41,141 nucleotides of DNA, taken from positions 1 to 41,141 of IMG/VR virus record IMGVR_UViG_3300032053_003431; one strand, given 5' to 3'. Below are positions 2-40,602 of the stretch, piece after piece (within the stretch, counting starts at the first letter, position 1; each line of letters begins with the position of its first letter). The translations under genes and the position numbers were made by a program. The stretch comes from a virus. The notes beneath the pieces were generated by a model that ran no database searches, was not told the origin of the DNA, and was given only the letters and a program-made list of their open reading frames with translations.

Positions 2-310
2 AAAAACTCGGAGGATCAGACAAAATCTACCGAAGATCTTCCTAAGAGCGGACTAAAAGAAAAGAAAGTTACCTCTACTAAGAATGATGAAAAGGATTAT
101 ATACAGCCTCCTACAGAAGACGAGGATCAATCAAGAGTTCCCTTTTTCAAAGAAGTTGACAAATTCAAAAAACTTTCTGAATTTCCAGTTGCTGGAGATA
201 AAGTTAAATATACTTATCCAAAACAGGACAAAAAAGAGAAAAAGCACATCGTTAAAGGTGGAAAAGGCAAAGAGCTCAAACTTGCAGCCACCAAAATTAA
301 AAAGAAGTAA
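2..310 (+). CDS. Lys-rich protein, C-terminal part (5' end outside window)
   Basis: The frame with codons starting at base 2 is open from the window edge to TAA at 308-310 and gives 102 residues of a larger protein. It is very rich in Lys, Glu, Asp and Ser, with a stretch containing PFFKEVDKF in the middle and a highly basic end (KIKKK). The first part looks disordered. No domain was recognised. A second open frame starting at base 84 overlaps it, but that one reads into the promoter at 322-349 and has less natural composition, so I take it as a shadow. Confidence 0.65.
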   Translation, partial: KNSEDQTKSTEDLPKSGLKEKKVTSTKNDEKDYIQPPTEDEDQSRVPFFKEVDKFKKLSEFPVAGDKVKYTYPKQDKKEKKHIVKGGKGKELKLAATKIKKK

Positions 311-359: not shown

Positions 360-1301
360 ATGAAAACTGATCTAAAATCCACACTGTCAAGGTGTCAGAA
401 ACTAAAACCAGACTTACTTGTAATCTCTGATCTGAAATGGAAGTATTTGGTAAGAAGTACGTTAAGAGGTAAAAACATATTAATTTTGGGAGAAACCGGC
501 TGTGGGAAAACACTAGCTGTGACCAGTGTAGCCAACGCAGTTGGAAAATTGGAAAAGTTTGAGAAATTTAATTTGGGAAGCACTCAAGATCCTCGAAGTT
601 CATTGATTGGAAATACTCACTTCGATAAACAGACGGGCACAATATTCAACGAATCCACATTCGTCCGTACAATCAGAAACCCAGAATCAATAATTCTTCT
701 AGATGAAATAAGCCGTGCTCATCCTGATGCGTGGAATATTCTAATGTCTACATTAGATGACACTCAAAGATATTTGAGATTGGATGAGAAGATTGATAAT
801 GAAGTAGTTAAAGTGGAAACCGGTGTCACGTTTATAGCCACCGCAAACGTTGGAAACGAATATACTGCGACAAGAGTTATGGATAGAGCTTTATTGGATA
901 GATTTCCTGTTAAAATAGAAATGTCCCGACTCGGAAAACAAGAAGAATATGATTTGATGGTAAGACGGTTTAAATTGACTGAAAAAGATATGTTAAAAAC
1001 ATTATCTGATATAGTCGAAATAGCCGAACACGTTCACCAGAACAAAAATTCGACAGATTCTAAATTAACAAATTCCATATCCACACGAGGAGTTGTTGAA
1101 ATGACGGAATTGATTCAAGATGGATTTTCTTTAAAAGAAATCGCGGAGTGTGTCATTTATCCATTCTTCGACGACTCCGGTGGCGTGGATAGTGAAAGAA
1201 CGTATGTCAAACAACTGGTACAGAAATATGTTCCCATAGATGGAATATCTGCCACACCATTTACAGCTTCCCCAAAACCTAACTCTAACGCTCCTTTTTA
1301 A
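360..1301 (+). CDS. MoxR/CobS-like AAA+ ATPase
   Basis: AAA+ ATPase of the MoxR/CobS (AAA_5) type, 313 residues. Visible motifs are Walker A GETGCGKT (44-51), Walker B IILLDE with D115 and E116, a sensor-1 stretch FIATANVGN, and an arginine-finger region ALLDRF. Such ATPases remodel protein complexes and typically pair with a VWA-domain partner; here the VWA gene follows after one base. Similar genes are annotated as cobS in T4-like cyanophages, where the role is not settled, and I see no cobalamin pathway in this window. ATG 360 directly follows the promoter at 322-349. The AAA+ call is firm; the specific role is unknown. Confidence 0.85.
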   Translation: MKTDLKSTLSRCQKLKPDLLVISDLKWKYLVRSTLRGKNILILGETGCGKTLAVTSVANAVGKLEKFEKFNLGSTQDPRSSLIGNTHFDKQTGTIFNESTFVRTIRNPESIILLDEISRAHPDAWNILMSTLDDTQRYLRLDEKIDNEVVKVETGVTFIATANVGNEYTATRVMDRALLDRFPVKIEMSRLGKQEEYDLMVRRFKLTEKDMLKTLSDIVEIAEHVHQNKNSTDSKLTNSISTRGVVEMTELIQDGFSLKEIAECVIYPFFDDSGGVDSERTYVKQLVQKYVPIDGISATPFTASPKPNSNAPF

Positions 1302-1302
1302 A

Positions 1303-3405
1303 ATGGAAACATATTCCGATTTTTGGATAGATGACATAGACGTTCCGAGTTACTCTGATGAATCAGAAGGTGATTCATTTGACATTAACCTTATTAAATT
1401 GGCCAATTCAAAAAGAGCTATAAGTAATTTCGTGCATATTTTAACAAACAGTCAGATACAAGTATTATTCAATACAAAAGAAAAGAATGCTACGGATGGT
1501 AGAGTGGTATATTTGTCAGCGGATATAAAAGAGAAATCGGATTTTGATATTGCGGTAGGGTTAGCTTTACACGAAGGTTCTCACGTTCTATTAAGTGATT
1601 TTGAGATATTAGTTACATTGTGGGGTAGAATTCCACGATACCTATATGATATATCTGAAAAAAAAGGGTTGAATAAAGAACATGTCCTCATACTGTTAAA
1701 AACTATTCTTAATTATATTGAAGACAGGTTCGTAGATCAATATGTTTATAATATGGCTCCCGGCTATCGGGGATATTATATATCTATGTATAACGAATTT
1801 TGGAATTCTGATTCCATTTCCACCGGACTAGAATCTCAGCTATACAGAACTCCGTCTATAGATTCATATTTATATCGAATAATTAATTTAACAAACCCCT
1901 CCACCGATTTATCAGCTTTGCCAGATTTAAACAAAGTTCATGGTTTGATTGGATTGGATAATATATTAAGGTTAAAAACTCCCCGAGATAGGCTTTTGTT
2001 AGCGGATACTATAACCGAGATAGTGTTGAGAAACATATGTGAGACTCAATATAAAAAGGAACCGTCCGTTTCTTCTCCATCCGGAACACCCTCCTCAGAC
2101 AACTCTTCGGGAAATGAACCAGTGGGGAAAACTGATAAAACTCCGGATTCTAATAAATCTGTAGAGGATGTCATCGGAGGAAATTCGGATTCTTCATCGG
2201 TGGAAAAATCCGCAGAAAATATTTCAAAATATGTTGATAATATTGGAACCGATGACTCTCTTACTAAATCTAAATTAAACAAGATAGAGAAAGGATTTGA
2301 AAAACAAAAAGAATTTTTATCCGGAGAAGTTTATAAAAAGAAATTGACTCGACAGGAAGAAACGACTATATCCGCTATAGAACAAAGTGGAATGACACTC
2401 GTTAGAGTGGGATCTGACTTGATTAATGGAAATAACTATAGAGGTATAGAATGTATCATGGTTAAAAAATTGACCAGAGAGTTATTGTTTAGCTCTGAGT
2501 TTCCGCTGGCGTCTGGAGAAGCATCGGTTTACAATATTTCCAAACAAAAAACAGTGGATAAAACAATGGAAAATTCTATTCACTGTGGAATAAGATTGGG
2601 AAAAATTCTTGGAAATAGGCTTCAGTTAAGACGAGATATAAGAAATACCAAATTCATGAGAAAAACTTCCGGTAAAATCGACAGCCGAACAATATCGGAG
2701 TTAGGGTTTGATTCAGAAAATATATTCTATTCAAACCAAGTAGATAAATATAATAAATCTATATTACATATAAGTGTCGATGCTAGTTCTTCTATGAGAG
2801 GAGAAAAATGGTACAATACGATGACAGCTGTAGTTGCAATCTGCAAAGCAGCATCTATGATAGATAATTTAGAAGTGAGCGTCAGTCTTAGAACTACAGT
2901 GATAAGCATGAAAGGGAAAACCAATCCATATGTGATAATAATATATGATTCTAAGGTGGATAAGTTTAATAAAATACCAAACTATTTTAGTCATTTAAGA
3001 CCCAACAATACCACTCCGGAGGGTTTGTCATTTGAAGCGTTAATTGATAACTTGCCAAATAGAAGTTCGGATGAAGAGGGTTATTTCCTAAACTTTTCAG
3101 ATGGAATGCCATATTTTTCATCTACTGTAGATGGGTTTGAATTAAATTATTTTAATACTTTAGCACACAACCACACCAAGAAACAAGTTTCTTTTATAAG
3201 AAATAAGGGATATAAGATATTATCGTATTTTATAACAGATACACCTGACAATGTAGATTTATCCAATAAAAAAAATGAATCATATCTTAAAATTAGGAAC
3301 GCATTTAAAACAATGTATGGAAAAGATGCTTCTTTTGTGAACGTAAATAATATAGTAGAAATATCAAAAACGATGAATGCCCTCTTTTTGAGAAAAAATG
3401 ATTGA
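1303..3405 (+). CDS. CobT-like VWA-domain protein with HExxH motif
   Basis: A 700-residue partner of the upstream AAA+ ATPase. The N-terminal part contains ALHEGSH (H90, E91, H94), a zinc-metalloprotease-like HExxH. A Ser/Asp/Glu-rich, probably disordered linker lies around residues 255-330. The C-terminal part has a von Willebrand A MIDAS motif DASSS (D493-S497). MoxR-type ATPase plus VWA protein is an established chelatase/chaperone pairing (CobS-CobT, ChlI-ChlD, NorQ-NorD). An upstream in-frame ATG at 1240 lies inside the ATPase gene; ATG 1303, one base after that gene's stop, is the better start. Whether the HExxH is catalytic cannot be told from sequence. Confidence 0.8.
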   Translation: METYSDFWIDDIDVPSYSDESEGDSFDINLIKLANSKRAISNFVHILTNSQIQVLFNTKEKNATDGRVVYLSADIKEKSDFDIAVGLALHEGSHVLLSDFEILVTLWGRIPRYLYDISEKKGLNKEHVLILLKTILNYIEDRFVDQYVYNMAPGYRGYYISMYNEFWNSDSISTGLESQLYRTPSIDSYLYRIINLTNPSTDLSALPDLNKVHGLIGLDNILRLKTPRDRLLLADTITEIVLRNICETQYKKEPSVSSPSGTPSSDNSSGNEPVGKTDKTPDSNKSVEDVIGGNSDSSSVEKSAENISKYVDNIGTDDSLTKSKLNKIEKGFEKQKEFLSGEVYKKKLTRQEETTISAIEQSGMTLVRVGSDLINGNNYRGIECIMVKKLTRELLFSSEFPLASGEASVYNISKQKTVDKTMENSIHCGIRLGKILGNRLQLRRDIRNTKFMRKTSGKIDSRTISELGFDSENIFYSNQVDKYNKSILHISVDASSSMRGEKWYNTMTAVVAICKAASMIDNLEVSVSLRTTVISMKGKTNPYVIIIYDSKVDKFNKIPNYFSHLRPNNTTPEGLSFEALIDNLPNRSSDEEGYFLNFSDGMPYFSSTVDGFELNYFNTLAHNHTKKQVSFIRNKGYKILSYFITDTPDNVDLSNKKNESYLKIRNAFKTMYGKDASFVNVNNIVEISKTMNALFLRKND

Positions 3406-3422: not shown

Positions 3423-3450
3423 TTGACATCTTATGATAAGATGTTATAGT
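3423..3450 (+). promoter_or_regulatory. Promoter of the monocistronic gene at 3472
   Basis: TTGACA at 3423-3428, a 16-base spacer ending TGT, and TATAGT at 3445-3450, the best consensus match in the window. Predicted +1 is near 3457, giving a leader of about 15 bases. An ATG at 3433 lies between the -35 and -10 boxes, so it cannot be the start of the transcribed gene. Confidence 0.75.
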
Positions 3451-3471
3451 AAAGATGTAGGTTATAAAATT

Positions 3472-3858
3472 ATGAATACACAAAACACACCAAATAAAAC
3501 GGGACGGAAGAATAAAACCAAATTAGTAGTAAATTGGCCCACGTCTCATTTCACCATCAAGGAGCTCCACGCTTTAAACCCAGACTTTGTTGAGATCACG
3601 TTACGAGTGAGACTTCAAGGTTTTCTTGAGCGCTCGGAAGTTACAGAACTCGGAACTCTCCACATGGAAAAGGGACGACCAAAGTTGGTTTTCGCTAAGT
3701 CTCCAGTAAACGCCAAGGTAATTGAGTCGGCGAAGAACTCCGGAGTATTGTTCTCCGAATCTACCACTGTAAAAGTGACCGATATCACTTCTCCAACTCA
3801 GCCAGCTGTAACTCTCAAGAGTGAGCCAGCCAAGAAGTCCGTTGGACAACCAGCGTAA
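3472..3858 (+). CDS. Small basic protein, possible winged-helix DNA binder, probably highly expressed
   Basis: A 128-residue protein. Residues about 20-75 (WPTSHFTIKELHALNPDF onward, with LGTLHMEKGRPKLVFA later) suggest a helix-turn-helix followed by a beta wing, and both ends look disordered and basic. I do not recognise a named family. The gene stands alone with a strong promoter 22 bases upstream and two hairpins downstream. Its codons end in C or G far more often than its neighbours' do, a usual sign of high expression or different ancestry. I chose ATG 3472 because the in-frame ATG at 3433 falls inside the promoter. A structural or chromatin-like DNA-binding role is a guess. Confidence 0.75.
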   Translation: MNTQNTPNKTGRKNKTKLVVNWPTSHFTIKELHALNPDFVEITLRVRLQGFLERSEVTELGTLHMEKGRPKLVFAKSPVNAKVIESAKNSGVLFSESTTVKVTDITSPTQPAVTLKSEPAKKSVGQPA

Positions 3859-4150: not shown

Positions 4151-5338
4151 ATGAATTCAACTAACAATTTTTTCGATATTCCTGATTTTGATTACGTCGG
4201 CGAGAAGAAAAAATTTATAGATAATATGAATTTTTTAAAGTTAATGTCGGTAGAGGAACAAACTTTCTATAAAAAATGGTATGAATTACAGAGCTACCAA
4301 TCGTTTATTTCCAATTCTTCTTTGGTAAAAGCAAAAATATGGAATCCATCCGATATAGAAGATGAAAAATTAACACTGGCCGAAATAGAAAATATAAACC
4401 CAACGATAGAGTTGGTGAATTCTGAGACAACGGAATCGGATTGGTTAATGTTGAGAATATTCTGTCACACTATGGAGTTTAGTCAGACTCCCGGACGATT
4501 TTTAAAGTTTATTATTCACGACGGAAATAATTCAGATCGTCGTTATTTAGGAGCCATATCTGTATCAAGCGACGTAATATCCATAAGTGATAGAGACAAC
4601 TACATAGGATGGAAATCTGAAAATAAGTTACAAGACCACAAAAGAATAAACAATAGCGCAATTGGAAGTTGTATCATGTCAACCCAACCGTTTGGATACA
4701 ATTTCTTAGGCGGGAAACTAGCGGCGTGTCTGGTAACCACGTCCACTGTTAGAGATTGTTGGAAAAAGACATATGATAACATTTTAGCAGGAATGACCAC
4801 TACCAGTTTATATGGAAGTTTTAGTATGTATAATGGATTAAAATGGTGGCATAAATGTGGGAGCAGTGCTGGAAAAATGTCTATTAAACCCGATGACAAC
4901 CGTTATAAAATCTGGCATCATTGGTTACAGGAGAATAAATCTGAAGAATATAAGAAATCCATGTTACAAAAAGAAGGTGTATCTGGACCAGTGACGGGGG
5001 CCAAATCTCGAACCATATCTATGATTTTTAGAGAATTGGGAATAAAATCGTCCGATTATATGCATGGATACCAGAGGGGCGTGTATTATTCGTCTTTTTA
5101 TGAGAATACTAAAGATTTTCTATGTGACAAATTAGAAGAGGATAAACTGATCATGAAACCATTGTTTATTAACGATAAAAGTGGCATACTTGACTGGTGG
5201 AGGCCAAAGGCTATGGAAAGATACAAACGGTTGAAATTAGAGGGGAAACTCAAAAAAGACATACTTTATTATAATTCTATGATAGGGATGTCATATTTAG
5301 AATCAAAAGAAAGGTATTTCGATGAAGTCGGAAGATAA
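4151..5338 (+). CDS. DUF4338 / DruA-like protein (long paralogue)
   Basis: A 395-residue protein. Its core RYLGAISVSSDVISISDRD, followed by NYIGW and later INNSAIGSC, matches the LGA.G.SS...RD.(F/W)(V/I)GW...NNSR pattern of DUF4338, the family of DruA from the Druantia defence system. It shares this core with the shorter gene at 7490. The N-terminal 110 residues and a C-terminal part with WWRPKAMERYKRL are extra. The biochemical role of DUF4338 is not known to me. It heads its own short operon with the gene at 5322, behind a near-leaderless promoter. Family assignment is from motif memory and is moderately sure. Confidence 0.65.
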   Translation: MNSTNNFFDIPDFDYVGEKKKFIDNMNFLKLMSVEEQTFYKKWYELQSYQSFISNSSLVKAKIWNPSDIEDEKLTLAEIENINPTIELVNSETTESDWLMLRIFCHTMEFSQTPGRFLKFIIHDGNNSDRRYLGAISVSSDVISISDRDNYIGWKSENKLQDHKRINNSAIGSCIMSTQPFGYNFLGGKLAACLVTTSTVRDCWKKTYDNILAGMTTTSLYGSFSMYNGLKWWHKCGSSAGKMSIKPDDNRYKIWHHWLQENKSEEYKKSMLQKEGVSGPVTGAKSRTISMIFRELGIKSSDYMHGYQRGVYYSSFYENTKDFLCDKLEEDKLIMKPLFINDKSGILDWWRPKAMERYKRLKLEGKLKKDILYYNSMIGMSYLESKERYFDEVGR

Positions 5339-5723
5339 AAACTTATTAAGAATATCAGAAAATGGAGATAAATCTATAGGATTATACACCGGAGGAGGAT
5401 TGTTGTTATCAAATGGTTATAATAGAGTTGTGTTCGGAGGTCGAGGGAATTATGTTGAATTTCGAGACGATCAGATTATAAGCGACACAATTTACATACC
5501 GCCCAATCAATTATATAGATTGACCGATTTAAGAGTATATTATGTAGAATTTAGAAGTAGAGGATTCTCAAATGTTAAAGTTTATTACCAACTTAAAACG
5601 GTTGCGTATGCTGATTACAAAATCGGCATGTTTTATATATCCGCATCCGATCTGTTTTTGGACGGAAAACCAATTTTAAAACCAAATACGAACAATGAAA
5701 AAAGTTCAGAGTTTTTTGAATAA
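5322..5723 (+). CDS. Unknown protein, predicted mostly beta
   Basis: A 133-residue protein whose start overlaps the end of the upstream DUF4338 gene by 17 bases, implying translational coupling. It is rich in Tyr, Gly and beta-prone residues, with GYNRVVFGGRGNYVEF near residues 32-47 and a later YYVEFRSRGFSNVKVYY stretch. No catalytic motif, signal peptide or membrane segment is visible. I do not recognise the family. The position suggests a functional link to the DUF4338 protein. Confidence 0.7.
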   Translation: MKSEDKNLLRISENGDKSIGLYTGGGLLLSNGYNRVVFGGRGNYVEFRDDQIISDTIYIPPNQLYRLTDLRVYYVEFRSRGFSNVKVYYQLKTVAYADYKIGMFYISASDLFLDGKPILKPNTNNEKSSEFFE

Positions 5724-5743
5724 ATTTAAAATAATGAAAAAGT

Positions 5744-5772
5744 TTGACATAGGTTTGATTTGAATGTAATCT
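5744..5772 (+). promoter_or_regulatory. Promoter of the monocistronic gene at 5833
   Basis: TTGACA at 5744-5749, a 17-base spacer ending ATG, and TAATCT at 5767-5772. Predicted +1 near 5779 leaves a leader of about 54 bases before ATG 5833. This is unlike the near-leaderless promoters elsewhere in the window. Confidence 0.6.
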
Positions 5773-5832
5773 ATTAACACTAAACCGATATGAACAATGT
5801 GTGAATATCGAAAGTTAAAAATAAGGAAAAAA

Positions 5833-6048
5833 ATGATAGCACGAAAAAATAAAAAGAACAGGACAGCGTTTGTTTACGATAGTTTTGCCGGACTAGAAAC
5901 GTTCGTTTCAAAGTCGTTCAAGAACGCAAAGCAAGGAACTCGACTCACCATCCGAGATGGTTTTGACCGAGTTGATCTGACAGGTCGCCAAGTTAAGACT
6001 CTTCAACGAGTGTTGGCCCGAGCATCAAGAATCGCAGCAACCGCGTAA
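5833..6048 (+). CDS. Small basic protein, probably highly expressed
   Basis: A 71-residue basic protein (MIARKNKKNR at the start, LQRVLARASRIAATA at the end) with TRLTIRDGFDRVDLTGRQV in the middle. I do not recognise it; nucleic-acid binding would suit its charge. ATG 5833 has an AAGGA Shine-Dalgarno five bases upstream, one of the few clear ones in the window. An in-frame ATG at 5797 has none, so I prefer 5833. Codons are G/C-rich compared with neighbours, the gene has its own promoter, and it ends in a double hairpin. This is the same organisation as the gene at 3472. Confidence 0.7.
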   Translation: MIARKNKKNRTAFVYDSFAGLETFVSKSFKNAKQGTRLTIRDGFDRVDLTGRQVKTLQRVLARASRIAATA

Positions 6049-6097
6049 TCCGAATAAGGATTCTTACGAAAGGGCCAGGAGTAAATTCCTGGCCCTT
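6047..6097 (+). terminator. Double hairpin with intrinsic terminator after the gene at 5833
   Basis: A short hairpin AATCC (6047-6051) / GGATT (6058-6062) overlaps the stop codon. It is followed by an 11-bp perfect stem, 6070-6080 pairing with 6087-6097 (AGGGCCAGGA / TCCTGGCCCT core), with loop GTAAAT and a pyrimidine tail. The layout mirrors the double hairpin at 3861-3910. Confidence 0.85.
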
Positions 6098-6107
6098 CTT
6101 ACTTGTT

Positions 6108-6380
6108 ATGTTAATACTCTTTACTTTTTTATTTACATCGATTTTTTGTTATATTTTCCCAAATATTATCCCAGTTGTTATTGGATTAATATCATGTTCT
6201 CTACTTTTTCAATCAGAATCCAATAGGATAAACTTGGAAAACATGCAATCAAATTTAGAATCTCAGCAGTCTTTAAATAAAAAATTAGAAAATGATATAA
6301 ATATTTTGAATAAAAACCAGTCCGTGATAGTATTACAACTGAAAAAGAAAACCAATAATCATGGCGAAAACAAAAAATAA
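6108..6380 (+). CDS. Small membrane protein with coiled-coil tail
   Basis: A 90-residue protein. Residues 1-35 are strongly hydrophobic (LILFTFLFTSIFCYIFP, then IIPVVIGLISCSLLF) and form one or two membrane segments. The rest, from about residue 36, is a polar Glu/Asn/Leu/Lys-rich coiled coil. This layout resembles small spanin-like or anchor proteins, but nothing specific supports that. It starts just after the terminator at 6097 without an evident promoter or Shine-Dalgarno. Its last 20 bases overlap the gp62-like gene. Confidence 0.6.
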   Translation: MLILFTFLFTSIFCYIFPNIIPVVIGLISCSLLFQSESNRINLENMQSNLESQQSLNKKLENDINILNKNQSVIVLQLKKKTNNHGENKK

Positions 6381-6843
6381 TTCCAACAGCACAATAAAGT
6401 TCAAGACTTTATTTGATCATGTAAATCAGATTAGAAATGTTAAAAACCAAGAATATTTCAAAGGGTTATCCGATCAGGACAAAAAGTCTTTCAACCATTA
6501 CATGATTTGTAGATTTCTGAGTATGGATTCTCGGTGCATTTATGAGGCATCATATCTGTCTAAAATATTTGATAAAATGGACAGTGAATCCTTTTATAAA
6601 GTATGTTGTGCCCTAATCCTACCAACTAAATTTACCCCATATATTAAAAGTAAAAACAAAAAGTTTCATTCTCGTCTGTTAGAGTTAGTTGGAAAAAAAT
6701 ATGAGATAAGCACCACAACTTCAAATGAATACTGTGAGATGTTGATCTCATCCGGCCATGAGGAAGAATTGAGGCAGATTTGTTCCAACTTTGGATTAAC
6801 AGAAAAAGAAATTGATAAGATCGTTACCAAAGATGAAAACTAA
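6361..6843 (+). CDS. 62: gp62-like clamp-loader small subunit
   Basis: A 160-residue protein resembling T4 gp62, the non-ATPase partner of gp44 that loads the gp45 clamp. Recognisable parts are an early FDHVNQIRNVKNQEYFKGLS then FNHYMICRFLSM region typical of marine T4-like gp62 proteins. A C-terminal LLELVGKKYEIS...EYCEML region aligns with the LLAKRYQVN...NYKSIL part of T4 gp62. In T4 genes 45-44-62 are adjacent; here 44 and 45 lie about 33 kb downstream. The next gene overlaps by 11 bases. The family is divergent, so this call rests on pattern memory. Confidence 0.7.
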   Translation: MAKTKNNSNSTIKFKTLFDHVNQIRNVKNQEYFKGLSDQDKKSFNHYMICRFLSMDSRCIYEASYLSKIFDKMDSESFYKVCCALILPTKFTPYIKSKNKKFHSRLLELVGKKYEISTTTSNEYCEMLISSGHEEELRQICSNFGLTEKEIDKIVTKDEN

Positions 6844-7489
6844 AAAATACATTGGAATATCGGGTGTCGCACGAGTTGGTAAAGATTTATACTCTGATAT
6901 TGCGGAGAGACTTTTATTAGATAAATATAATCTGTCTTCCGCCTCATTTGCGTTGGCATACTACATTAAAAAAGACTGTGAAGAATTTGTATCTGACAAA
7001 CTATCCATAAATGTTTGGTCAGAACTTACAGAGGATAAAGATATTTTTAGGCCACTTCTAGTTTGGTATGGCGGCATAAAACGAAAACAAAGCAAGGGGA
7101 GATATTGGATAGATAAGGTTGATGAGGATATCAAAAAAACTGACGTAGATGTAATACTTATAACCGACATAAGGTTTGCCGTTTATGACTACGACGAAAC
7201 ATATTGGTTAAAACATCAATTGGATGGTAAATTGGTTCATATAGCAAAATATTCTACTCTGGGGATTAACACCAATAGATTTGATCTTCCACAGACGGTT
7301 AAGAAGTTTGTAGACCCGGCGAATGATCAAGAAATGATAAACGATCCCACACTTAAAAAATGGAGTGACCATAGAATAGAATGGGAAGATGTATCAAAAA
7401 AACACTCGGAGAAATATTCTTCTATATTAACAGACCCATATCTTGTAGATATAGTTGACAAATCTTTGATTTCAATGAAAATTGTATAA
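6833..7489 (+). CDS. Deoxynucleoside monophosphate kinase-like P-loop protein
   Basis: A 218-residue protein opening with GISGVARVGKD, which matches the G(x)4GK P-loop of T4 gp1-type dNMP kinases (SGVKRSGKD in T4). A later VDVILITDIRFAVYDYDE stretch suits the second strand and Asp-Arg region of that fold. Such kinases convert dNMPs, including modified ones, to dNDPs for DNA synthesis. ATG 6833 overlaps the gp62-like gene by 11 bases; an upstream in-frame TTG at 6812 is less likely. The neighbour supports a DNA-metabolism role. Substrate cannot be read from sequence. Confidence 0.65.
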   Translation: MKTKKYIGISGVARVGKDLYSDIAERLLLDKYNLSSASFALAYYIKKDCEEFVSDKLSINVWSELTEDKDIFRPLLVWYGGIKRKQSKGRYWIDKVDEDIKKTDVDVILITDIRFAVYDYDETYWLKHQLDGKLVHIAKYSTLGINTNRFDLPQTVKKFVDPANDQEMINDPTLKKWSDHRIEWEDVSKKHSEKYSSILTDPYLVDIVDKSLISMKIV

Positions 7490-8251
7490 GTGAAAAATCT
7501 ATATAATACATCGGATAACTTTTTTGAAATAGAAAAACCAAATACTCAGGTTGTATTAGAATCGTGTATAAACCCTACTCAGAATAAACTGTTTAGGGAC
7601 ACAATTGACATTCACCATTCATATGTTAAGTATAAAGACTCTCCAACTAGAAATTTAAGGTATTTAGTCTACGAGGGAGTTTCGGGGAATCACATTGGAG
7701 CAATAGGGTTAAGTAGCGCTACAATTGCTGTAGCATGCAGAGATAAGTTCGTAGGTTGGAACAATGAAACTAAAATGAAGAATTTGAATAAACTTGCAAA
7801 TAACTCAAGATTCTGTTTAATACGACAAAACTCTACCATAAAAAACACCGCAAGCATGACACTAAAAGCCATCAGAATTGTTGGTTCAAAGGATTGGAAA
7901 TTAAGATATGGCGACGATTTGATATTGATAGAAACGTTCGTCCTACCAGAGAGAGAGGAAGAATATGATGGAAAGAAATTGAGAAATGGGAGTTGTTATA
8001 TATCAGATAATTGGATAAATGTTGGGATGACATCGGGAGCCAGCATCCAAAAATCTCCAATGCTGTTGTGGGCCAAGGAAACCGGTGAGAGAGGCCGCCT
8101 CGCCAGAGAAGATAAAAAAGAGTGTCTTAGGATATACGGAACGTATTTGGGGGATCACAATGGAAGCGGTTATAAAGTTACAGAAAGTAAGAAAAAGATA
8201 GTGTTTGTCAAACCCCTTGTCAAAAATTGGAAAAAGATTTTAAATTCATAA
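7490..8251 (+). CDS. DUF4338 / DruA-like protein (short paralogue)
   Basis: A 253-residue protein with the full DUF4338 pattern: HIGAIGLSSATIAVACRDKF then VGW, ANNSRFCLIR, a LRYGDDLILIETFV stretch, and a C-terminal NWINVGMTSG. This is the core of DruA (Druantia) and of related phage and transposon-borne proteins. It starts with GTG immediately after the previous stop. It shares its core with the gene at 4151 but lacks that gene's N- and C-terminal extensions. Molecular activity is unknown. Placement among nucleotide and DNA genes suggests an action on DNA (inference). Confidence 0.75.
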   Translation: MKNLYNTSDNFFEIEKPNTQVVLESCINPTQNKLFRDTIDIHHSYVKYKDSPTRNLRYLVYEGVSGNHIGAIGLSSATIAVACRDKFVGWNNETKMKNLNKLANNSRFCLIRQNSTIKNTASMTLKAIRIVGSKDWKLRYGDDLILIETFVLPEREEEYDGKKLRNGSCYISDNWINVGMTSGASIQKSPMLLWAKETGERGRLAREDKKECLRIYGTYLGDHNGSGYKVTESKKKIVFVKPLVKNWKKILNS

Positions 8252-21996: not shown

Positions 21997-23814
21997 ATGA
22001 AAATTAAAGTAAGCGATCTTATAGCTGAATTTTTAGAAAAAGCAGGAATAGATACAATATTTGGAATAATAGGATCAGCGAACTCCCACATATTCAACTC
22101 CATAGATAAACGAGGTTACACAAAAATTATATGTGTTCATCATGAACAGGCAGCTGTTATGGCTATGGGTGCATACTTTCGATCTTCTGGAAGAATAGCT
22201 GCTTCATTGGTGACCGCTGGTGCGGGTTCATCAAACGCTATCACCGGAGTCGTCAGTAATTGGGCAGACTCAATTCCTGGAATAATACTCTCCGGACAAG
22301 AACAAGCTAAGTTTTTGGAACAATATGAGGGTATGAGAATGTATGGGATTCAGGGGTTTGATTCTCCAAAGATGGTTAAGGATACAACTAAACGCTCAAT
22401 CACAGTTAAAGATGAGACATCTGTTCAACATAACTTGGAAGCAGCTCACTTCATAACTCGAACCGGAAGACCGGGCCCAGTGTGGATCGACTTCCCAATG
22501 GATGTTCAATCAAAAATGGTGGAACCTAGAGAATGGAATTTTATATCTCCGTTTGTGGAAGAGGAATTAACTGATTCCGAGAATTTTATATTGGAACAAG
22601 TATTAGAACAAATGTCTCAAGCAAAAAGGCCAATTATTTGGGCTGGCCACGGGATCCGTCTAGCCGGGATGAAGAATGAGTTTAGACAGTTAGTATCAAA
22701 ACTCAAAATTCCTGTAATATTGTCTTGGAGTGGTATAGATTTGTTACACAATGACGACCCATATTATTTTGGAAGAGCTGGAGTTACCGCGATACGATAT
22801 TCCAACTTCATAGTTCAGAATTGTGATTTTTTATTGGCTATCGGAACCAGACTCTCTTTATTACAAGCAGGATACGATGCATCTCAATTTGCTAGATCCG
22901 CTAAAATTGTTGTGGTAGACGTTGATAAAACTGAATTAGATAGGTTTGGAAAATTGAAGAATAATATTGTTCTGCCCCACGATTGTAGAACGGTGATGAA
23001 GAAGTTATCTTCGTCTGAAAAATCTTATTTTAAACCTGAGTGGGTAGATTATTGTAACAAGATGAAATCAAAATATCCTCTACTTGAACCATATCATGTG
23101 GATAATGGATATGCAAATTCATATAAGTTTTTGGATTTTTTAAGCGACAAGCTAAAAGGTAACGAGGTTATCGTAACTGATATGGGCACTGGGTTGTTGA
23201 GTGGACACTATTCAATTAAGTTGAAGCCAGATAATATGATGTTTACTTCCTTGGGCTTAGGAGAAATGGGTTATGGATTGCCTGGAGCTATAGGAGCAGC
23301 TTTTGCAAATCCGGATAGAGATATCATATGTCTGAACTGTGACGGTGGAATGATGATGAACCTACAAGAACTCCAAACAATAATACATCACAAACTTAGA
23401 ATTAAAATTGTAGTGTTCAACAATGATGGATATTTGATGATTAAACATACTCAAAATTTATTATTCAAAGGAGAGAGAACAGCGGTTAGTAAAAATACCG
23501 GAGTAAGTTGTCCAGATTATAGTAAGTTAGGAGAATCTCTTGGATTTCATATAACTAAGCCAGTTAGGTTATGTGATGATACGCTGAGTTCAAAGATTGA
23601 TGATTTTCTATCTGACAACGGCCCAACTATAATGGAAGTGTTCATGGATCCTGAACAGGATTTTTTACCAAAAGTAAAGGGAGTAGTAAACGAAGATGGA
23701 TCTATAACTCCCGCAAGTCTTGAAGAAATGTCGCCGCTGTTGTCATATGAGGATATAGAAGAGGCTATGATTTCCGGAGTTGATCCGAAATCGAAAGTCA
23801 TAAAAAGACCATGA
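21997..23814 (+). CDS. Thiamine-diphosphate enzyme, YerE-like C-C branching enzyme
   Basis: A 605-residue ThDP enzyme of the acetolactate-synthase superfamily. The N-terminal pyrimidine domain has VHHEQAAVMAMGAY with catalytic E50. The middle domain has PIIWAGHGIRLAGM. The C-terminal pyrophosphate domain carries NCDGGMMMNLQELQ (CDG at 448-450) closing with VVFNNDGY. Next to a 3-dehydrase it resembles YerE, which decarboxylates pyruvate and adds the acyl unit to C4 of CDP-4-keto-3,6-dideoxyglucose in yersiniose synthesis. A true acetolactate synthase is unlikely, as no other branched-chain amino acid gene is present. Its ATGA overlap with the dehydrogenase ties it to the next two genes. Confidence 0.78.
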   Translation: MKIKVSDLIAEFLEKAGIDTIFGIIGSANSHIFNSIDKRGYTKIICVHHEQAAVMAMGAYFRSSGRIAASLVTAGAGSSNAITGVVSNWADSIPGIILSGQEQAKFLEQYEGMRMYGIQGFDSPKMVKDTTKRSITVKDETSVQHNLEAAHFITRTGRPGPVWIDFPMDVQSKMVEPREWNFISPFVEEELTDSENFILEQVLEQMSQAKRPIIWAGHGIRLAGMKNEFRQLVSKLKIPVILSWSGIDLLHNDDPYYFGRAGVTAIRYSNFIVQNCDFLLAIGTRLSLLQAGYDASQFARSAKIVVVDVDKTELDRFGKLKNNIVLPHDCRTVMKKLSSSEKSYFKPEWVDYCNKMKSKYPLLEPYHVDNGYANSYKFLDFLSDKLKGNEVIVTDMGTGLLSGHYSIKLKPDNMMFTSLGLGEMGYGLPGAIGAAFANPDRDIICLNCDGGMMMNLQELQTIIHHKLRIKIVVFNNDGYLMIKHTQNLLFKGERTAVSKNTGVSCPDYSKLGESLGFHITKPVRLCDDTLSSKIDDFLSDNGPTIMEVFMDPEQDFLPKVKGVVNEDGSITPASLEEMSPLLSYEDIEEAMISGVDPKSKVIKRP

Positions 23815-24662
23815 AAATTAAAGTTGGAATTATAGGAAGTGGCAATATAGGGACAGATCTTCTAATGAAGACTCTGAAATCCGATATAATTGAAACCACG
23901 GCTTTTGTGGGAAGACGTGAATCCTCAGATGGAATTAAAAAGGCTATTGACAGAGGGATAGTCACATCCACCGATGGGATAGATTTTTTTAGAAAAAATC
24001 CAAACATATGCGACGTTGTGTTTGATTGCACCAATGCTTTTTCTGCTATTGAGAATAACGAAGTTTTTTCTTATCAGGGGATAAAAATTGTAGATTTAAC
24101 TCCATCCAAGATCGGAGATATGTGCGTTCCTATCATAAATGGAGATATAATCAAAACCAAATCAAATGTGAATATGATAACTTGTGGAGGACAAGCATCT
24201 ATCCCAATATTAAACTTGTTATCTACGTTAATACCTAATCAAATTGATTATATAGAAATAGTTTCTCAAGTAGCATCATTGAGCGCAGGTATAGCTACTA
24301 GGGTGAATATAGACAAATATATTCATACGACAGAATCAGCAATTTCACTGTTTACGAACTGTAAAAGTTGTAAAGTTATATTAAATATAAACCCAGCAGA
24401 ACCGTGTGTGGATATGCAGACTACCATGTTTATAAAATCTAAGGGTCTAGATTTAAAATCCATATTGTCAGGAATAAAAGAAAGAATTGAGTTGGTAAGG
24501 AAATACGTTCCATATTATGATATGGTTATGGATCCAGTTATAAACGATGATGTATTAATTTTAAGCATCAGAGTCAGAGGCGCCGGAGATTATCTACCAA
24601 GGTATTCTGGAAATTTAGATATAATAAACTGTGCAGCAATAAACGTGGTGGAAAGATTATGA
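23811..24662 (+). CDS. Acylating acetaldehyde dehydrogenase homologue (DmpF/MhpF family)
   Basis: A 283-residue enzyme interconverting an aldehyde and its acyl-CoA with NAD. It has the Rossmann motif GIIGSGNIGTDL (7-17), the catalytic cysteine C125 in NMITCGGQASIP, ASLSAGIATRVNID, NPAEPCVDMQTT, and the C-terminal GAGDYLPRYSGNLDI. It is slightly shorter than the usual 300-312 residues, but every key motif is present. The family works in a complex with an HMGL-type aldolase, encoded immediately downstream with an ATGA overlap. Here it may run in the acyl-CoA to aldehyde direction to supply the aldolase (inference). Confidence 0.9.
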   Translation: MKIKVGIIGSGNIGTDLLMKTLKSDIIETTAFVGRRESSDGIKKAIDRGIVTSTDGIDFFRKNPNICDVVFDCTNAFSAIENNEVFSYQGIKIVDLTPSKIGDMCVPIINGDIIKTKSNVNMITCGGQASIPILNLLSTLIPNQIDYIEIVSQVASLSAGIATRVNIDKYIHTTESAISLFTNCKSCKVILNINPAEPCVDMQTTMFIKSKGLDLKSILSGIKERIELVRKYVPYYDMVMDPVINDDVLILSIRVRGAGDYLPRYSGNLDIINCAAINVVERL

Positions 24663-33594: not shown

Positions 33595-33872
33595 ATATAA
33601 ATAATTTTACAGACTTTTACAATCTTATAAAATCGTGCGGGCTTCAATCCGTTTCTCCGTTCAACAATTTTATATCTACCGTAGAACAATATGTATCTAT
33701 ATGTGAATGTGATAACCCTTCGTTAAAAGCTGCTAAATTAGCAGATTCTATTAACATATATGAGAGCATTATATCGGGAGCAGTTTCTTCATATATAAAC
33801 ACATTTAAATCGAAAAAATCGGTTTCAGTTATACATTTTTACAACAGAGGGAGATTGGTCAGAACGTACTAA
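33591..33872 (+). CDS. Unknown small protein
   Basis: A 93-residue, mostly helical protein (INNFTDFYNLIKSCGLQSVS at the start, VSSYINTFKSKKSVSVIHFY near the end) coupled to the membrane-protein gene by ATGA. I recognise no motif or family. Its stop codon overlaps that of the convergent nuclease gene by four bases, and no terminator lies between them. Confidence 0.65.
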   Translation: MNINNFTDFYNLIKSCGLQSVSPFNNFISTVEQYVSICECDNPSLKAAKLADSINIYESIISGAVSSYINTFKSKKSVSVIHFYNRGRLVRTY

Positions 33873-35928: not shown

Positions 35929-37674
35929 GTGTATCAAAATATATTTCATTCTAGAAAAGACGACACTATCATAATTTGGGATGATAAAGTTGGAAAAATT
36001 GTTATTCCCGCTGGCCAGGCTAGATATGCTTATAGAAAAAAGGATGGCGGAATTTACAAATCTCTATATGGAGATGAGTTGGAAAAAGTAACACATTTTT
36101 CTCCAAACGACCCATCGTTATTTGAATCAGATGTCCCACTAACGACTAGAGTTTTGATCGACGCGTATGAAGGCGACGATGAACCATCCACGGGACATAG
36201 AGTTGTCTGTTTGGACATAGAAACCGACGTGGAAGATGGATTTCCAAATATTCAAGAAGGTGATAAAGAAATAACCGCTATAGCTATATATGACGACGTT
36301 TCAAAACACGAAACAGCAATGATTTTGGATAAAGATAGGTTACTTCAAGATTCTGAAACAGCTGGAACATCGATACTCTCGTTTGACAACGAAGAATCTC
36401 TTATTTCACATTTTATAACAAAAATGGAGGAAATTCAACCAACCATTATCACCGGTTGGAATATAGGAAGTTTCGACATGCCCTACCTCTATAATAGAAT
36501 TTGTAGAGTGATGGATAAACGCGTTATTCAGAGACTTTCTCCAATAGGAACGGTTTATATAAACAAGTTTTCAAAAGAACTTAATATAGCTGGAGTTTCC
36601 ATTTTAGATTATATCGTTCTGTATAAAAAATTTATTGGTAGAAACGAATCAAGTTATGCTTTGGGAGTCATAGGTAAAAAGGTAGTGAATATGGATAAGA
36701 TCACATATAAGGGTAGTTTAAACGATTTATATAGATCTGATATTAAGAAGTATATCGAATATAACTTGAATGACGTAAGGATAGTGGTTGCTTTGGATGA
36801 AAAATTGAAGTTTATAGACCTCGCCAGAAACATCTGTCATACAGGTCACGTTCCATATGAATTTTTCGGGATGTCAAGTCGTTACATTGAGGGGGCTATG
36901 TTATTATATCTAAGGAGACAGAAATTGGTATCTTCTAATAAACCAGTGAACATAGAGGAAGAAGAAGGTTCTAATCCATCCGATGAAGAGGACGAAGAGG
37001 GATTTGAAGGAGCATATGTCAAAGAACCGATCCCTGGAAGATATGATTGGGTATTTGACTTGGATTTGACTTCTATGTATCCAAACATCATGATTAGCTT
37101 AAATATTAGTCCCGAAACGGTGGTGTCTAAAGTTGAAAATTGGAATATCGAAAAATATTTAAAAAATGAAATTTTGGAAATAAAAGTCGCTGGTGAAAAT
37201 TATACATTGGAAGAATTTAAATCGATGATGTTAGAGAAGAAATTTTCCATCGCTTCCAATGGAGTTATTTATAGTAGAGATAAGGTGGGATTGATTCCGA
37301 GTATTTTGATAAAATGGTTCGATGAAAGAAAAGAGATGAGGAAAAAGGCTAAAAAATTCGCAGATGAAAAGAATTGGGAAAAATACGAATTTTATGATCA
37401 GAGACAAAAGGTTCAGAAAATCCTTCTTAACAGCGCCTATGGAGTTTTAGGATTGCCAGTATTTAGATTTTACAATAAAGATAACGCCTCAGCGGTGACA
37501 TTATGTGGACAAGATATAATAAAAACAACCGACAAAGTAATAAATCAATTTTATAAAAATATATTGGGTAGAAGGTATAAAGTAACATATGACGATGGAT
37601 CATCGGAACTCTTCTATGAACACGAATTGGATAAAAATGTCATTGATAATTATGAAAAATATTGTAAAAATTGA
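35929..37674 (+). CDS. 43: Family-B DNA polymerase, N-terminal part (T4 gp43-like)
   Basis: The first 581 residues of a T4-type replicative DNA polymerase. Exo I is LDIETD (D96, E98), Exo II contains NIGSFDMPY (D183), and Exo III is the later YNLNDVRIV. Polymerase motif A is DLDLTSMYP (D379), and motif B is KVQKILLNSAYG (K497-Y504). Motif C is missing here and is found in the next frame. The last 35 residues (RYKVTYDDGSSELF onward) have no counterpart in T4 gp43 at this point. Start is GTG, one base after the previous stop. Together with the gene at 37637 the total is about 890 residues, near T4's 898. Confidence 0.9.
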   Translation: MYQNIFHSRKDDTIIIWDDKVGKIVIPAGQARYAYRKKDGGIYKSLYGDELEKVTHFSPNDPSLFESDVPLTTRVLIDAYEGDDEPSTGHRVVCLDIETDVEDGFPNIQEGDKEITAIAIYDDVSKHETAMILDKDRLLQDSETAGTSILSFDNEESLISHFITKMEEIQPTIITGWNIGSFDMPYLYNRICRVMDKRVIQRLSPIGTVYINKFSKELNIAGVSILDYIVLYKKFIGRNESSYALGVIGKKVVNMDKITYKGSLNDLYRSDIKKYIEYNLNDVRIVVALDEKLKFIDLARNICHTGHVPYEFFGMSSRYIEGAMLLYLRRQKLVSSNKPVNIEEEEGSNPSDEEDEEGFEGAYVKEPIPGRYDWVFDLDLTSMYPNIMISLNISPETVVSKVENWNIEKYLKNEILEIKVAGENYTLEEFKSMMLEKKFSIASNGVIYSRDKVGLIPSILIKWFDERKEMRKKAKKFADEKNWEKYEFYDQRQKVQKILLNSAYGVLGLPVFRFYNKDNASAVTLCGQDIIKTTDKVINQFYKNILGRRYKVTYDDGSSELFYEHELDKNVIDNYEKYCKN

Positions 37675-38575
37675 AGAAATTGATCAATGTGATCATGTAT
37701 TATATGTAGACACAGACTCAGCGTTCGCATCAGCTGTCCCAATTATCCAAAAAACCATGTCAAATGTGGATTTGAATGATGAAAAACAAATGACCGATGC
37801 TATATTGAAAATCGCATCAGATGTTCAGATATATGTCAATAAGTTTTATGACGTAATGGCTCAAAAGTTCTTTAATATTGAACAACATAGATTTGATATT
37901 AAACAAGAAGTCATTTCTAAATCTAGTTTTTGGTTGGCTAAGAAGAGATATTGTCAACTCATAATAAACAAGGGTGGAGTCGTTTGTGATGAAATGGAAG
38001 TTAAAGGAATAGATGTAGTAAGAACTAGTTTCCCTGCTACATTTAGAAAGTTCATGAATAAGTTTTTGATGGATATGCTTAAAAAAGTGGATAGAAAAGA
38101 AGTGGATGATACGATCATACAATTTTTAGAAAATATCAAAGAATTAAACATATTGGATTTGGCCAAAACTACATCTGTAAAGTTTTCAAGTCAAGCTACG
38201 AGAAAAGAGTATAACCCAAAATCCAGAAAACCATTTCAAATAATACTTGGTTCTCCTGCACAAGTAAAATCTGCTCTGATGTATAATGATTTGTTGAAAC
38301 ATTGGGGGTTGACTAAACATGTTCCTCCTATTTTTAATGGTCAAAAAATCAAATATGTATATCTCAAAGAAAATTCATTTGGAATTGATGCTATGGCGTT
38401 GAAAGCTGATGGAACTGATCCGAAAGAAATTTTAGAGTTTGTGGAAAAGTATATTGACCGAACCGCAATGTATGATCACGAACTAAAGAGCAAGCTGGTA
38501 GCATTTTATTCCATTTTGAAATGGGATTATCCAAGTTTGGGGAGTAAAAAGGCTGCTGAATTTTTTGAATTTTAA
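37637..38575 (+). CDS. 43: Family-B DNA polymerase, C-terminal part (motif C, palm-thumb)
   Basis: Continues the polymerase in the +1 frame. Motif C is YVDTDSAF (D25, D27 from ATG 37637), followed by palm and thumb regions with FWLAKKRYCQLI and KGIDVVRTS (KxY-type motif). The likely start is ATG 37637 or ATG 37652, overlapping the first part by 38 or 23 bases. It would be 312 or 307 residues. Deleting one A from the AAAAA at 37666-37670 would join both frames into a smooth sequence, so a sequencing indel or natural frameshift cannot be excluded. The C-terminus is a typical PIP-like end, AAEFFEF, for clamp binding. Confidence 0.85.
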   Translation: MSLIIMKNIVKIEEIDQCDHVLYVDTDSAFASAVPIIQKTMSNVDLNDEKQMTDAILKIASDVQIYVNKFYDVMAQKFFNIEQHRFDIKQEVISKSSFWLAKKRYCQLIINKGGVVCDEMEVKGIDVVRTSFPATFRKFMNKFLMDMLKKVDRKEVDDTIIQFLENIKELNILDLAKTTSVKFSSQATRKEYNPKSRKPFQIILGSPAQVKSALMYNDLLKHWGLTKHVPPIFNGQKIKYVYLKENSFGIDAMALKADGTDPKEILEFVEKYIDRTAMYDHELKSKLVAFYSILKWDYPSLGSKKAAEFFEF

Positions 38576-38907: not shown

Positions 38908-39648
38908 ATGAACAAAAAAACAATCGAAACATTTATCAAAAAATATTCCTTAAATGGAGTGATAGAATCCGTAAAGTGGGTGGTAGACTCAAAAAATAAA
39001 ACCCTAACGACAAATGCTATTACGGAAGAAAAGAACGTATTGATTGATGTGAAAATGGAGGATTTCACTTCGATTGACGAAGATATCGAAATAGGAATTT
39101 ATGAAACTTCTAAATTGGTCAAGATGTTATCGGTGTTGTCTGACGAAATGACTATATCCATTAACAAAAAGGACGACGAAATCAAATCTCTCGGACTTTC
39201 TGACACAACCACCGATGTTCAGTTCGTTACCGCTGATTTATCCGTTATCCCAAGTTCACCGGCTTTGAAAAAACTTCCTGATTTCGGAGTTGAAATATCT
39301 ATGGATGAAGAGTTCGTAAATAAGTTTATCAAAGCTAAATCAGCATTACCTGAGGTTGACACTTTTACGTTAAAAATGAACAAGAAAAACAAACTTGAAA
39401 TGGTGATAGGATATTCAGAACTAAACAGCAATAGGATTACGTTGTCACTTACAACAGCTGATGGGAAAAATGTTGTGACAAAAAACATTAGTTTTAACGC
39501 TAAATATCTAAAGGAAATCCTTACTTCAAATAGTGATTGCCCAAATGCTAAGTTAATGGTTAGTGACGCCGGAATTTCAAAAATCGAGTTCTCAAATGAC
39601 AGTTTTAGGTCAACGTATTACATGGTAGAAGTAAAAAGTGCTGATTAA
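38908..39648 (+). CDS. 45: Sliding clamp (gp45-like)
   Basis: A 246-residue protein with the PCNA-like pattern of T4-type clamps (T4 gp45 is 228): an N-terminal IETFIKKYSLNGVIESVKWV, a LSDEMTISINKKDDEIKSL stretch, and a C-terminal SFNAKYLKEILTSNSDCPNA half-domain repeat ending in FRSTYYMVEV. The clamp is a ring that gives the polymerase processivity and in T4 also serves late transcription. It heads the 45-44 operon, as in T4, but gp62 is elsewhere (6361). Confidence 0.85.
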   Translation: MNKKTIETFIKKYSLNGVIESVKWVVDSKNKTLTTNAITEEKNVLIDVKMEDFTSIDEDIEIGIYETSKLVKMLSVLSDEMTISINKKDDEIKSLGLSDTTTDVQFVTADLSVIPSSPALKKLPDFGVEISMDEEFVNKFIKAKSALPEVDTFTLKMNKKNKLEMVIGYSELNSNRITLSLTTADGKNVVTKNISFNAKYLKEILTSNSDCPNAKLMVSDAGISKIEFSNDSFRSTYYMVEVKSAD

Positions 39649-39651
39649 TAT

Positions 39652-40602
39652 ATGAGTTTTTTATTAGAAGAAGTTCCTACTAAGTCAAACTCAAAACATA
39701 CTTTGTGGGTTGAGAAATATAGGCCGGCTGTATTGGATGATTATATAGGGAATGATCAATTGAGGGAGACTGTTAAATCTTTTATAGATAAGGGAGACGT
39801 TCCACATCTTCTTTTTTATGGAAGCGCTGGAGGTGGTAAAACCGCATTGGCTAAACTAATCACCAAGAATATATCATGTGACGTTTTGTATATAAACTCC
39901 AGTGATGAAACGGGGGTTGATAATGTAAGAGGTAAAATCAAGGGATTCGCATCTACTTCTGGATTCAACAAACTAAAAATTATTATATTGGACGAAAGCG
40001 ACTTTTTAAGCACGGAGAGTCAAGCTGCTCTGAGAAATTTAATGGAAACGTTTAGCTTAACTACTAGGTTTATCTTGACATGTAATTATCATGAAAAGAT
40101 AATATCTCCAATAATTTCCAGATGTCAAACTTTTGAAATAATACCACCATCTAAAAAAGCGGTAGCAATACATTTAAATAACATTCTCGATATGGAATCC
40201 GTAGAACATACGATGGAAGACATTGGATATATTGTAAACACGTATTATCCAGATATTAGGAAAATTTTGAATTTTGCACAACAAAGTTCTCTGGGTGGAA
40301 AAATAAAAATAAGTTCAGATAAATCATTAGCATCCGATTTGCAGGATAGAATTATTTCTATTTTAAAAAGTGGATCATTAACTGCCTTCGCGGAAATAAG
40401 ACAGTTGATTGCAGATAATGATATTTCCATGTTTGATGAATATTATTCTCTGTTATATAGAAAAGTATCCGAGTATTCCAAGAACAAAGATGTAGCGGTT
40501 ATTATGACTATCGCTGAATATCTACACCAAAGTTGTCTGGTGGTAGATAAGGAAATTACGTTCATGGCATGTATAGGAGCAATATTAAAAACCATAAAGT
40601 GA
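39652..40602 (+). CDS. 44: Clamp-loader ATPase subunit (gp44-like)
   Basis: A 316-residue AAA+ ATPase (T4 gp44 is 319). It has a box II WVEKYRPAVLDDYIG, Walker A GSAGGGKT with K63, Walker B IILDESDF (D114, E115), a sensor-1 FILTCNYHEKI, and the SRC motif ISRCQTFEI that contacts neighbouring subunits and DNA. It opens and loads the gp45 ring with gp62. Starts three bases after the clamp gene and ends in a GTGA overlap with the next gene. Confidence 0.95.
   Translation: MSFLLEEVPTKSNSKHTLWVEKYRPAVLDDYIGNDQLRETVKSFIDKGDVPHLLFYGSAGGGKTALAKLITKNISCDVLYINSSDETGVDNVRGKIKGFASTSGFNKLKIIILDESDFLSTESQAALRNLMETFSLTTRFILTCNYHEKIISPIISRCQTFEIIPPSKKAVAIHLNNILDMESVEHTMEDIGYIVNTYYPDIRKILNFAQQSSLGGKIKISSDKSLASDLQDRIISILKSGSLTAFAEIRQLIADNDISMFDEYYSLLYRKVSEYSKNKDVAVIMTIAEYLHQSCLVVDKEITFMACIGAILKTIK

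What the first reader, a model, noticed from the sequence alone, without database searches (positions are those of the whole stretch)
4151..8251. Two DUF4338 (DruA-like) paralogues in one phage region
Genes at 4151 and 7490 share the DUF4338 core but differ in extensions. DruA belongs to the Druantia anti-phage system, so phage copies could be decoys, inhibitors, or enzymes that act on DNA. Their neighbours are clamp-loader and dNMP kinase genes, which favours DNA-related work.
Basis: partly seen in the sequence, partly recalled or inferred. Interest (0 to 1): 0.6.

Follow-up and report, generated by a model that had tools for sequence, protein, structure and literature searches.

The report
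Phage DruA genes resemble Mom enzymes
Two genes in this large environmental phage look like a bacterial anti-phage defence protein, but their shape and their genetic neighbours suggest they are relatives of Mom, the phage Mu enzyme that chemically disguises phage DNA, working beside the phage's own DNA-copying machinery.

Summary
Both ORFs (4151-5338, 395 aa; 7490-8251, 253 aa) exceed the Pfam cut-off for PF14236 (DruA/DUF4338). They are not recent duplicates. DruA1 belongs to the subtype of genuine Druantia type I DruA (LGGKL, TTS motifs). DruA2 belongs to a different subtype (NNxRF, ETFV, GxxYxAdNW) otherwise found as insertion-sequence passengers in bacteria.

DruA2's AlphaFold model matches GNAT acyltransferases in the PDB (E 5.6e-6) and phage Mom among viral models (E 5.2e-8). 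Profile comparison gives homology to Mom (E 1.7e-9), with most Mom-invariant residues shared.

The pair is conserved in 41 other viral contigs. Relatives carry a true Mom gene in the same block: 22 of 29 DruA-bearing contigs against 1 of 21 gp44-bearing contigs without DruA. Mom can overlap DruA2 or DruA1 by a few bases. The window ends just short of where Mom lies in its closest relatives.

Most likely this is a replisome-linked DNA acyl-modification cassette that shields phage DNA. A decoy or inhibitor of Druantia is poorly supported. That DUF4338 is GNAT-like, and that cyanophages carry DruA-like genes, was already published. The Mom kinship, the operon and the two subtypes look new. The chemistry is untested.

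The parts
4151..5338 (+). DruA1: 395-aa DUF4338 protein of the Druantia-DruA subtype; predicted GNAT-related core with a TQPxGxNxLGGKL loop and TTSLYG, plus helical N- and C-terminal extensions
   Evidence: PF14236 81 bits; PADLOC DruA 8.8e-23; AF2 pLDDT 90.9; at least 566 viral relatives
7490..8251 (+). DruA2: 253-aa DUF4338 protein of the ETFV subtype (GTG start); Mom-related GNAT-fold protein
   Evidence: PF14236 88.6 bits; Foldseek GNATs 5.6e-6 and Mom 5.2e-8; hhalign to Mom 1.7e-9
6361..6843 (+). gp62-type clamp-loader subunit between the two DruA genes
   Evidence: PHROG 225 8.4e-14; conserved between DruA1 and DruA2 in relatives
6812..7489 (+). deoxynucleoside monophosphate kinase-like gene, abutting DruA2
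   Evidence: PHROG 139 2.4e-9
360..1301 (+). MoxR/CobS-like AAA ATPase upstream of DruA1; the gene block that follows Mom in relatives
   Evidence: PF07728 2.6e-16; synteny
1240..3405 (+). Partner of the AAA ATPase, VWA-like by its DASSS motif (inference; no Pfam hit); real start probably near 1303
   Evidence: no family; synteny
3433..3858 (+). Unknown protein, conserved before DruA1 in relatives
5322..6380 (+). Three small unknown ORFs (5322-5723, 5797-6048, 6108-6380) between DruA1 and gp62
2..310 (+). Cut-off 3' end of a gene whose relatives lie directly between Mom and the AAA ATPase; places Mom just off the left end of the window (inferred)
35929..38575 (+). DNA polymerase (gp43-like), split here by a frame change; follows the DruA/Mom cluster directly in some relatives
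   Evidence: PHROG 262 4.7e-125 and PHROG 1918 3e-45
38908..40602 (+). Sliding-clamp-like gene (38908-39648, named by position; its PHROG has no known function) and gp44 clamp loader (39652-40602); DruA1 sits between them in other relatives
   Evidence: PHROG 168 6.2e-74 for gp44

Best explanation
DruA1 and DruA2 are GNAT-related proteins of a phage DNA-modification cassette that also contains Mom. Proposed working: Mom and DruA2 bind an acyl-CoA at the beta4-alpha3 loop and transfer or rework an acyl-type group on a base of newly replicated phage DNA. DruA1, whose gene lies inside the polymerase / clamp / clamp-loader block, couples this to the replisome or performs a further step. The modified DNA would then resist host nucleases. 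Shown here: DUF4338 membership, the predicted GNAT fold and Mom homology of DruA2, conservation of the pair, and linkage to Mom and replication genes in relatives. Inferred: that the substrate is DNA, the donor and product, the division of labour, the presence of Mom in this very phage, and the protective purpose.
For: Fold: the listed PDB matches of the DruA2 model are GNAT-type acyltransferases (best E 5.6e-6, prob 1.00), and Mom of Salmonella phage FSL SP-031 is its second-best viral match (5.2e-8). Sequence: DruA2 family against Mom by hhalign gives 1.7e-6, rising to 1.7e-9, score 70.5, when bacterial members are added; the highest of 240 column-shuffled controls scored 48.5, and for the first comparison the best of 250 controls was 31.8 against 49.1. 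A Mom HMM hits some DruA2 genes directly (8.9e-9). Residues: DruA2 H43, R107, N119, T149, G167, Y170, N174, G179 align with Mom H58, R111, N121, S146, G156, Y159, N163, G168; nearly all are constant in phage and bacterial members. Context: 22 of 29 DruA-bearing contigs have Mom over the cut-off against 1 of 21 gp44-bearing contigs without DruA (p 3e-7); among contigs of 100 kb or more 15/18 against 1/9 (p 6e-4). All 10 records with both subtypes at full length have Mom. Mom ORFs abut or overlap DruA2 in 9 contigs and DruA1 in 5. The local Mom genes keep the Mom-invariant residues. DruA1 lies between gp44 and gp62 in cyanophages and between clamp and gp44 in other contigs. The ORF at the window's left edge is the gene that follows Mom in its nearest relatives.
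Against: The Asp of Mom (D149) is Q, L or E in DruA2, so the chemistry may differ. DruA1 lacks the Mom-type His and Arg, gives no direct match to Mom (E 0.23), and only weak GNAT or HAT structural matches (1.4e-3), so it may not be an enzyme at all. The DruA2 model is of moderate confidence (pLDDT 76.5). Isolated cyanophages and pelagiphages with DruA1 mostly lack Mom (1 of 6). The contigs compared are related fragments, so the Fisher p-values overstate independence. Many GNATs act on proteins. No Mom gene is inside the window.
Confidence: 0.6

Rival explanations
1. The DruA proteins are GNAT enzymes that act on proteins (replisome, RNA polymerase or host factors), and Mom is only a neighbour.
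For: GNATs commonly modify proteins. Published authors treated a DUF4338/GNAT domain fused to DndF as a possible protein-targeting effector (PMC10853773). DruA1 sits among replisome genes.
Against: DruA2's nearest enzyme relative is a DNA modifier, and its genes overlap with Mom in several lineages.
Confidence: 0.2
2. DruA1 (and possibly DruA2) is a non-catalytic DNA-binding or partner protein that targets Mom or the replisome, keeping a GNAT-like fold without activity. This can hold together with the best explanation.
For: DruA1 lacks the Mom-type His and Arg but strongly conserves other motifs and long helical extensions.
Against: The conserved glycine-rich TQPxGxNxLGGKL loop lies where GNATs bind the CoA pyrophosphate (between predicted beta 169-177 and helix 187-194), which argues for ligand binding. 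DruA2 keeps most of the Mom-type residues.
Confidence: 0.3
3. The phage copies are decoys or inhibitors of host Druantia type I.
For: DruA1 is the nearest relative of genuine Druantia DruA in the tree and matches the PADLOC DruA model.
Against: DruA1 is found in at least 566 viral stretches and in Kyanoviridae inside replication operons, not as a sporadic accessory gene. Identity to Druantia DruA is only about 26%. DruA2 belongs to a non-Druantia subtype. Decoying would not explain the linkage to Mom.
Confidence: 0.06
4. The genes are parts of an inter-phage or superinfection-exclusion defence carried by the phage.
For: DUF4338 occurs in Druantia and fused to some DndF.
Against: No relative of druB-E was recognised among the ten genes around DruA1 and DruA2. 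The order of genes follows replication blocks.
Confidence: 0.05

Closest known systems
Mom of phage Mu (PF25680), the DNA-adenine modifying GNAT
   Same: GNAT-type fold; collinear motifs H-Y, R, N, S/T, GxxYxAxN, G in DruA2; found in one gene block in relatives
   Different: D149 of Mom is replaced in DruA2; overall identity about 20%; DruA1 lacks His and Arg and has long extensions; product unknown
DruA of Druantia type I (e.g. L226 Pseudomonas putida plasmid, L227 Nitrosococcus plasmid)
   Same: PF14236; DruA1 shares the LGGKL and TTS..S.YN motifs and is the sister group in the tree
   Different: No druB, C, D or E recognised around the phage genes; replication operon instead of a defence island; about 26% identity
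DruA-like proteins of cyanophages (T4-like GC 1216; Phold paper PMC12774648)
   Same: Relatives of DruA1, set between gp44 and gp62
   Different: Known there only by structural resemblance to DruA; most lack Mom and DruA2
IS-borne DUF4338 genes (next to IS4 or IS66 transposase genes, fused to an ISAs1 transposase in one case)
   Same: Same ETFV subtype as DruA2 (hhalign 2.1e-36)
   Different: Passenger genes of bacterial insertion sequences, up to many copies per genome
GNAT (DUF4338) domain fused to some DndF proteins (PMC10853773)
   Same: Same Pfam family, already called GNAT by those authors
   Different: Fused defence protein; Mom is not mentioned in that paper

Membership tests
PF14236 DruA/DUF4338 | Score over the curated cut-off (27 bits) | tested here: met
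   81 and 88.6 bits
GNAT fold (DruA2) | Structural match to solved GNATs | tested here: met
   Best E 5.6e-6, prob 1.00, on a model of pLDDT 76.5
GNAT fold (DruA1) | Structural match to solved GNATs | tested here: inconclusive
   Best 1.4e-3 to p300; a 158-aa M. jannaschii domain (3eo4) prob 0.98, E 0.017
Mom (PF25680) | Score over the curated cut-off | tested here: not met
   Neither window protein matches PF25680; a relative's DruA2 reaches 13.9 bits only
Mom (PF25680) | Profile homology and order of invariant residues | tested here: met
   DruA2 only: hhalign 1.7e-9; residues shared except D149 and E108. DruA1: no match
Mom (PF25680) | Converts adenine in DNA to the Mom-modified base | not testable with these tools
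   Needs LC-MS/MS or enzyme assay
Druantia type I | druA with druB, C, D and helicase druE in one operon | tested here: not met
   Ten genes around DruA1 and DruA2 scanned with Pfam and PHROGs, none a DruE-type helicase or recognised Dru protein; genuine systems used as yardstick show them
Druantia type I DruA | Sequence motifs of genuine DruA | tested here: met
   DruA1 only: LGGKL, TTS, S-YN-LK; tree support 0.925
Anti-Druantia decoy | Blocks Druantia protection | not tested
   Bench test only

The most novel reading that the evidence does not exclude
These phages run a multi-GNAT DNA hypermodification pathway (Mom, DruA2, DruA1) attached to the replisome and producing a base modification more complex than Mu's, and Druantia's DruA descends from the same DNA-modifying stock, so that Druantia type I would write or read an acyl mark on DNA.
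Probability: 0.3. Interest if true: 0.85.

Novelty: new variant of a known kind. Interest (0 to 1): 0.62.

Why it matters
DruA has no published biochemical role that I could find in the library searched. Kinship with Mom gives Druantia type I and hundreds of aquatic T4-like phages a concrete hypothesis: acyl modification of DNA bases. It predicts an undetected modified base in widespread aquatic phages and explains why DruA-like genes sit in replication operons. The same test (LC-MS/MS of virion DNA with and without each gene) would bear on a defence system and on phage DNA protection at once.

Tried and rejected
Recent local duplication: rejected, since each copy belongs to a separate subtype shared with bacterial genes. 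Direct Mom match for DruA1: none. PDB sequence match for DruA2: none. tblastn of DruA2 in isolated phages: none, so its phage relatives are all from IMG/VR. First genome-contig scan with the phage DruA2 profile found nothing; a scan with the bacterial subtype found over 500. Adding the local Mom genes to the Mom alignment lowered the DruA2-Mom score (39.3 against 49.1), so the link rests on the diverse Mom set. The Mom active-site paper and the Iyer 2009 and 2013 papers are not held, so catalytic roles of Mom residues are known to me from memory only and were not used as tests. The annotation of one cyanophage homologue as 'methylcarbamoylase mom' was taken as a lead, not evidence.

Full report
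Observation. Two ORFs on the + strand, 4151-5338 and 7490-8251, match Pfam PF14236 (DruA, formerly DUF4338) at 81 and 88.6 bits against a cut-off of 27. The window is a 41-kb virus record. Between the two genes lie three small unknown ORFs, a gp62-type clamp-loader subunit and a dNMP kinase-like gene.

Two subtypes, not one duplication. Bacterial members were brought in as yardsticks. DruA genes of Druantia type I loci on two plasmids, with partner Dru proteins found by PADLOC, share with window DruA1 the LGGKL loop and TTS..S.YN motif. Bacterial DUF4338 genes lying beside IS4 or IS66 transposase genes, or fused to an ISAs1 transposase, share with DruA2 the NNxRF, N..S, ETFV and GxxYxAaNWxxxGxTxG motifs. 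In a tree rooted on Mom, phage DruA1 with its cyanophage and pelagiphage relatives groups with Druantia DruA (0.925), and DruA2 stands apart. The alignment is very divergent, so deep branches are only indicative.

What the fold is. AlphaFold models were made from alignments of viral relatives: DruA1 pLDDT 90.9, DruA2 76.5. DruA2's listed PDB matches are GNAT-type acyltransferases, best E 5.6e-6. Its second-best match among viral models is Mom of a Salmonella phage, E 5.2e-8. DruA1 gives only weak matches to p300/HBO1-type acetyltransferases and GNATs, though its beta 169-177 / glycine-rich loop / helix 187-194 arrangement is what a GNAT CoA loop would look like (inference).

Homology to Mom. 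An alignment of 13 diverse phage Mom proteins matched the DruA2 family at E 1.7e-6, prob 90%. With bacterial members added the match rises to E 1.7e-9, prob 96%, score 70.5, running from before the His-Tyr motif to the C-terminal K..Y.YPL motif. Column-shuffled controls reached at most 48.5, and 31.8 for the first comparison; shuffles in blocks of 10 to 20 columns keep real motif pieces and are therefore strict. A Mom HMM picks out some DruA2 genes by itself (8.9e-9; 1.5e-8 for a DruA2-like gene of another lineage). Mom's D149 is the main invariant residue not kept, and its E108 aligns with an invariant Asn.

Gene neighbourhood. Both subtypes occur together in 41 other viral contigs, nearly always on one strand and 1.3-8.5 kb apart. 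A search for Mom in 26 DruA-bearing contigs found it over the cut-off in 22. Of 25 contigs chosen only by similarity to the window's gp44, 21 lacked DruA, and one of these had Mom. Combined, 22/29 against 1/21; for contigs of 100 kb or more, 15/18 against 1/9. The sequences are related and many contigs incomplete, so these are not independent trials. Mom abuts or overlaps DruA2 in nine contigs and DruA1 in five. In L067 the order is DruA2, Mom, Mom, DruA1, DNA polymerase, clamp, gp44, all on one strand. A short DruA2-like gene followed by two Mom genes appears in another lineage. The local Mom genes keep the Mom-invariant residues almost throughout.

This window. No Mom gene lies inside it. 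In its near relatives L005 and L082, Mom lies about 1 kb before the MoxR-like gene with one gene between, and the truncated ORF at window positions 2-310 is the end of that intervening gene. Mom is therefore expected just beyond the left edge; this is an inference.

Breadth. DruA1 relatives: at least 566 viral stretches. In cyanophages the relative lies between gp44 and gp62. Pelagibacter phage HTVC008M has two DUF4338 genes, one by CobS and peptidase genes and one directly after DNA polymerase. Isolated Kyanoviridae with DruA1 mostly lack Mom (1 of 6), so DruA1 can act without Mom.

What was known. A comparative-genomics paper on DNA phosphorothioate systems calls DUF4338 a GNAT domain when fused to DndF (PMC10853773). 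The Phold authors noted DruA-like proteins in six Synechococcus phages (PMC12774648). Mom as a DNA-modifying GNAT in phages is reviewed in PMC7824862. In the open-access library I found no paper linking DruA or DUF4338 to Mom; subscription papers were not searchable.

Conclusion. A replisome-linked DNA acyl-modification cassette best fits fold, homology and context. That DruA2 is a Mom-related GNAT is about 0.9 likely; that the pair serves DNA modification about 0.6; the exact role of DruA1 is open.

Noticed in passing
window 35929-38575: DNA polymerase gene is split into two overlapping ORFs by a frame change near 37670, while 43 of 47 sequences with both parts have it in one ORF. Real split, frameshifting or assembly error not decided.
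   Followed up: partly
window 8256-33247: A block of about 25 kb of sugar and glycan genes (GT61, DegT aminotransferase, epimerases) that includes a TPP enzyme, an acylating acetaldehyde dehydrogenase and a DmpG-type aldolase in a row at 21997-25666.
   Followed up: partly
L375-L392, L334-L337, L229: ETFV-type DUF4338 genes behave as insertion-sequence passengers: beside IS4 or IS66 transposase genes, fused to ISAs1, and in many copies in one Accumulibacter MAG.
   Followed up: partly
window 360-3405: MoxR-like ATPase and its VWA-like partner are conserved beside DruA1 and Mom in the window's relatives; CobS and peptidase genes hold this place in pelagiphages.
   Followed up: partly
BFVD A0A3G4ZXG3: The best viral structural match of DruA2 is an uncharacterised 469-aa protein of a giant virus (Faunusvirus), E 1.9e-10.
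   Followed up: no
L397 3536-4660 and L230 4902-6044: Pelagibacter phage HTVC008M carries two DUF4338 genes, one directly downstream of DNA polymerase.
   Followed up: partly
window 33869-34759: A PD-(D/E)XK nuclease gene on the minus strand, opposite to nearly all other genes.
   Followed up: no
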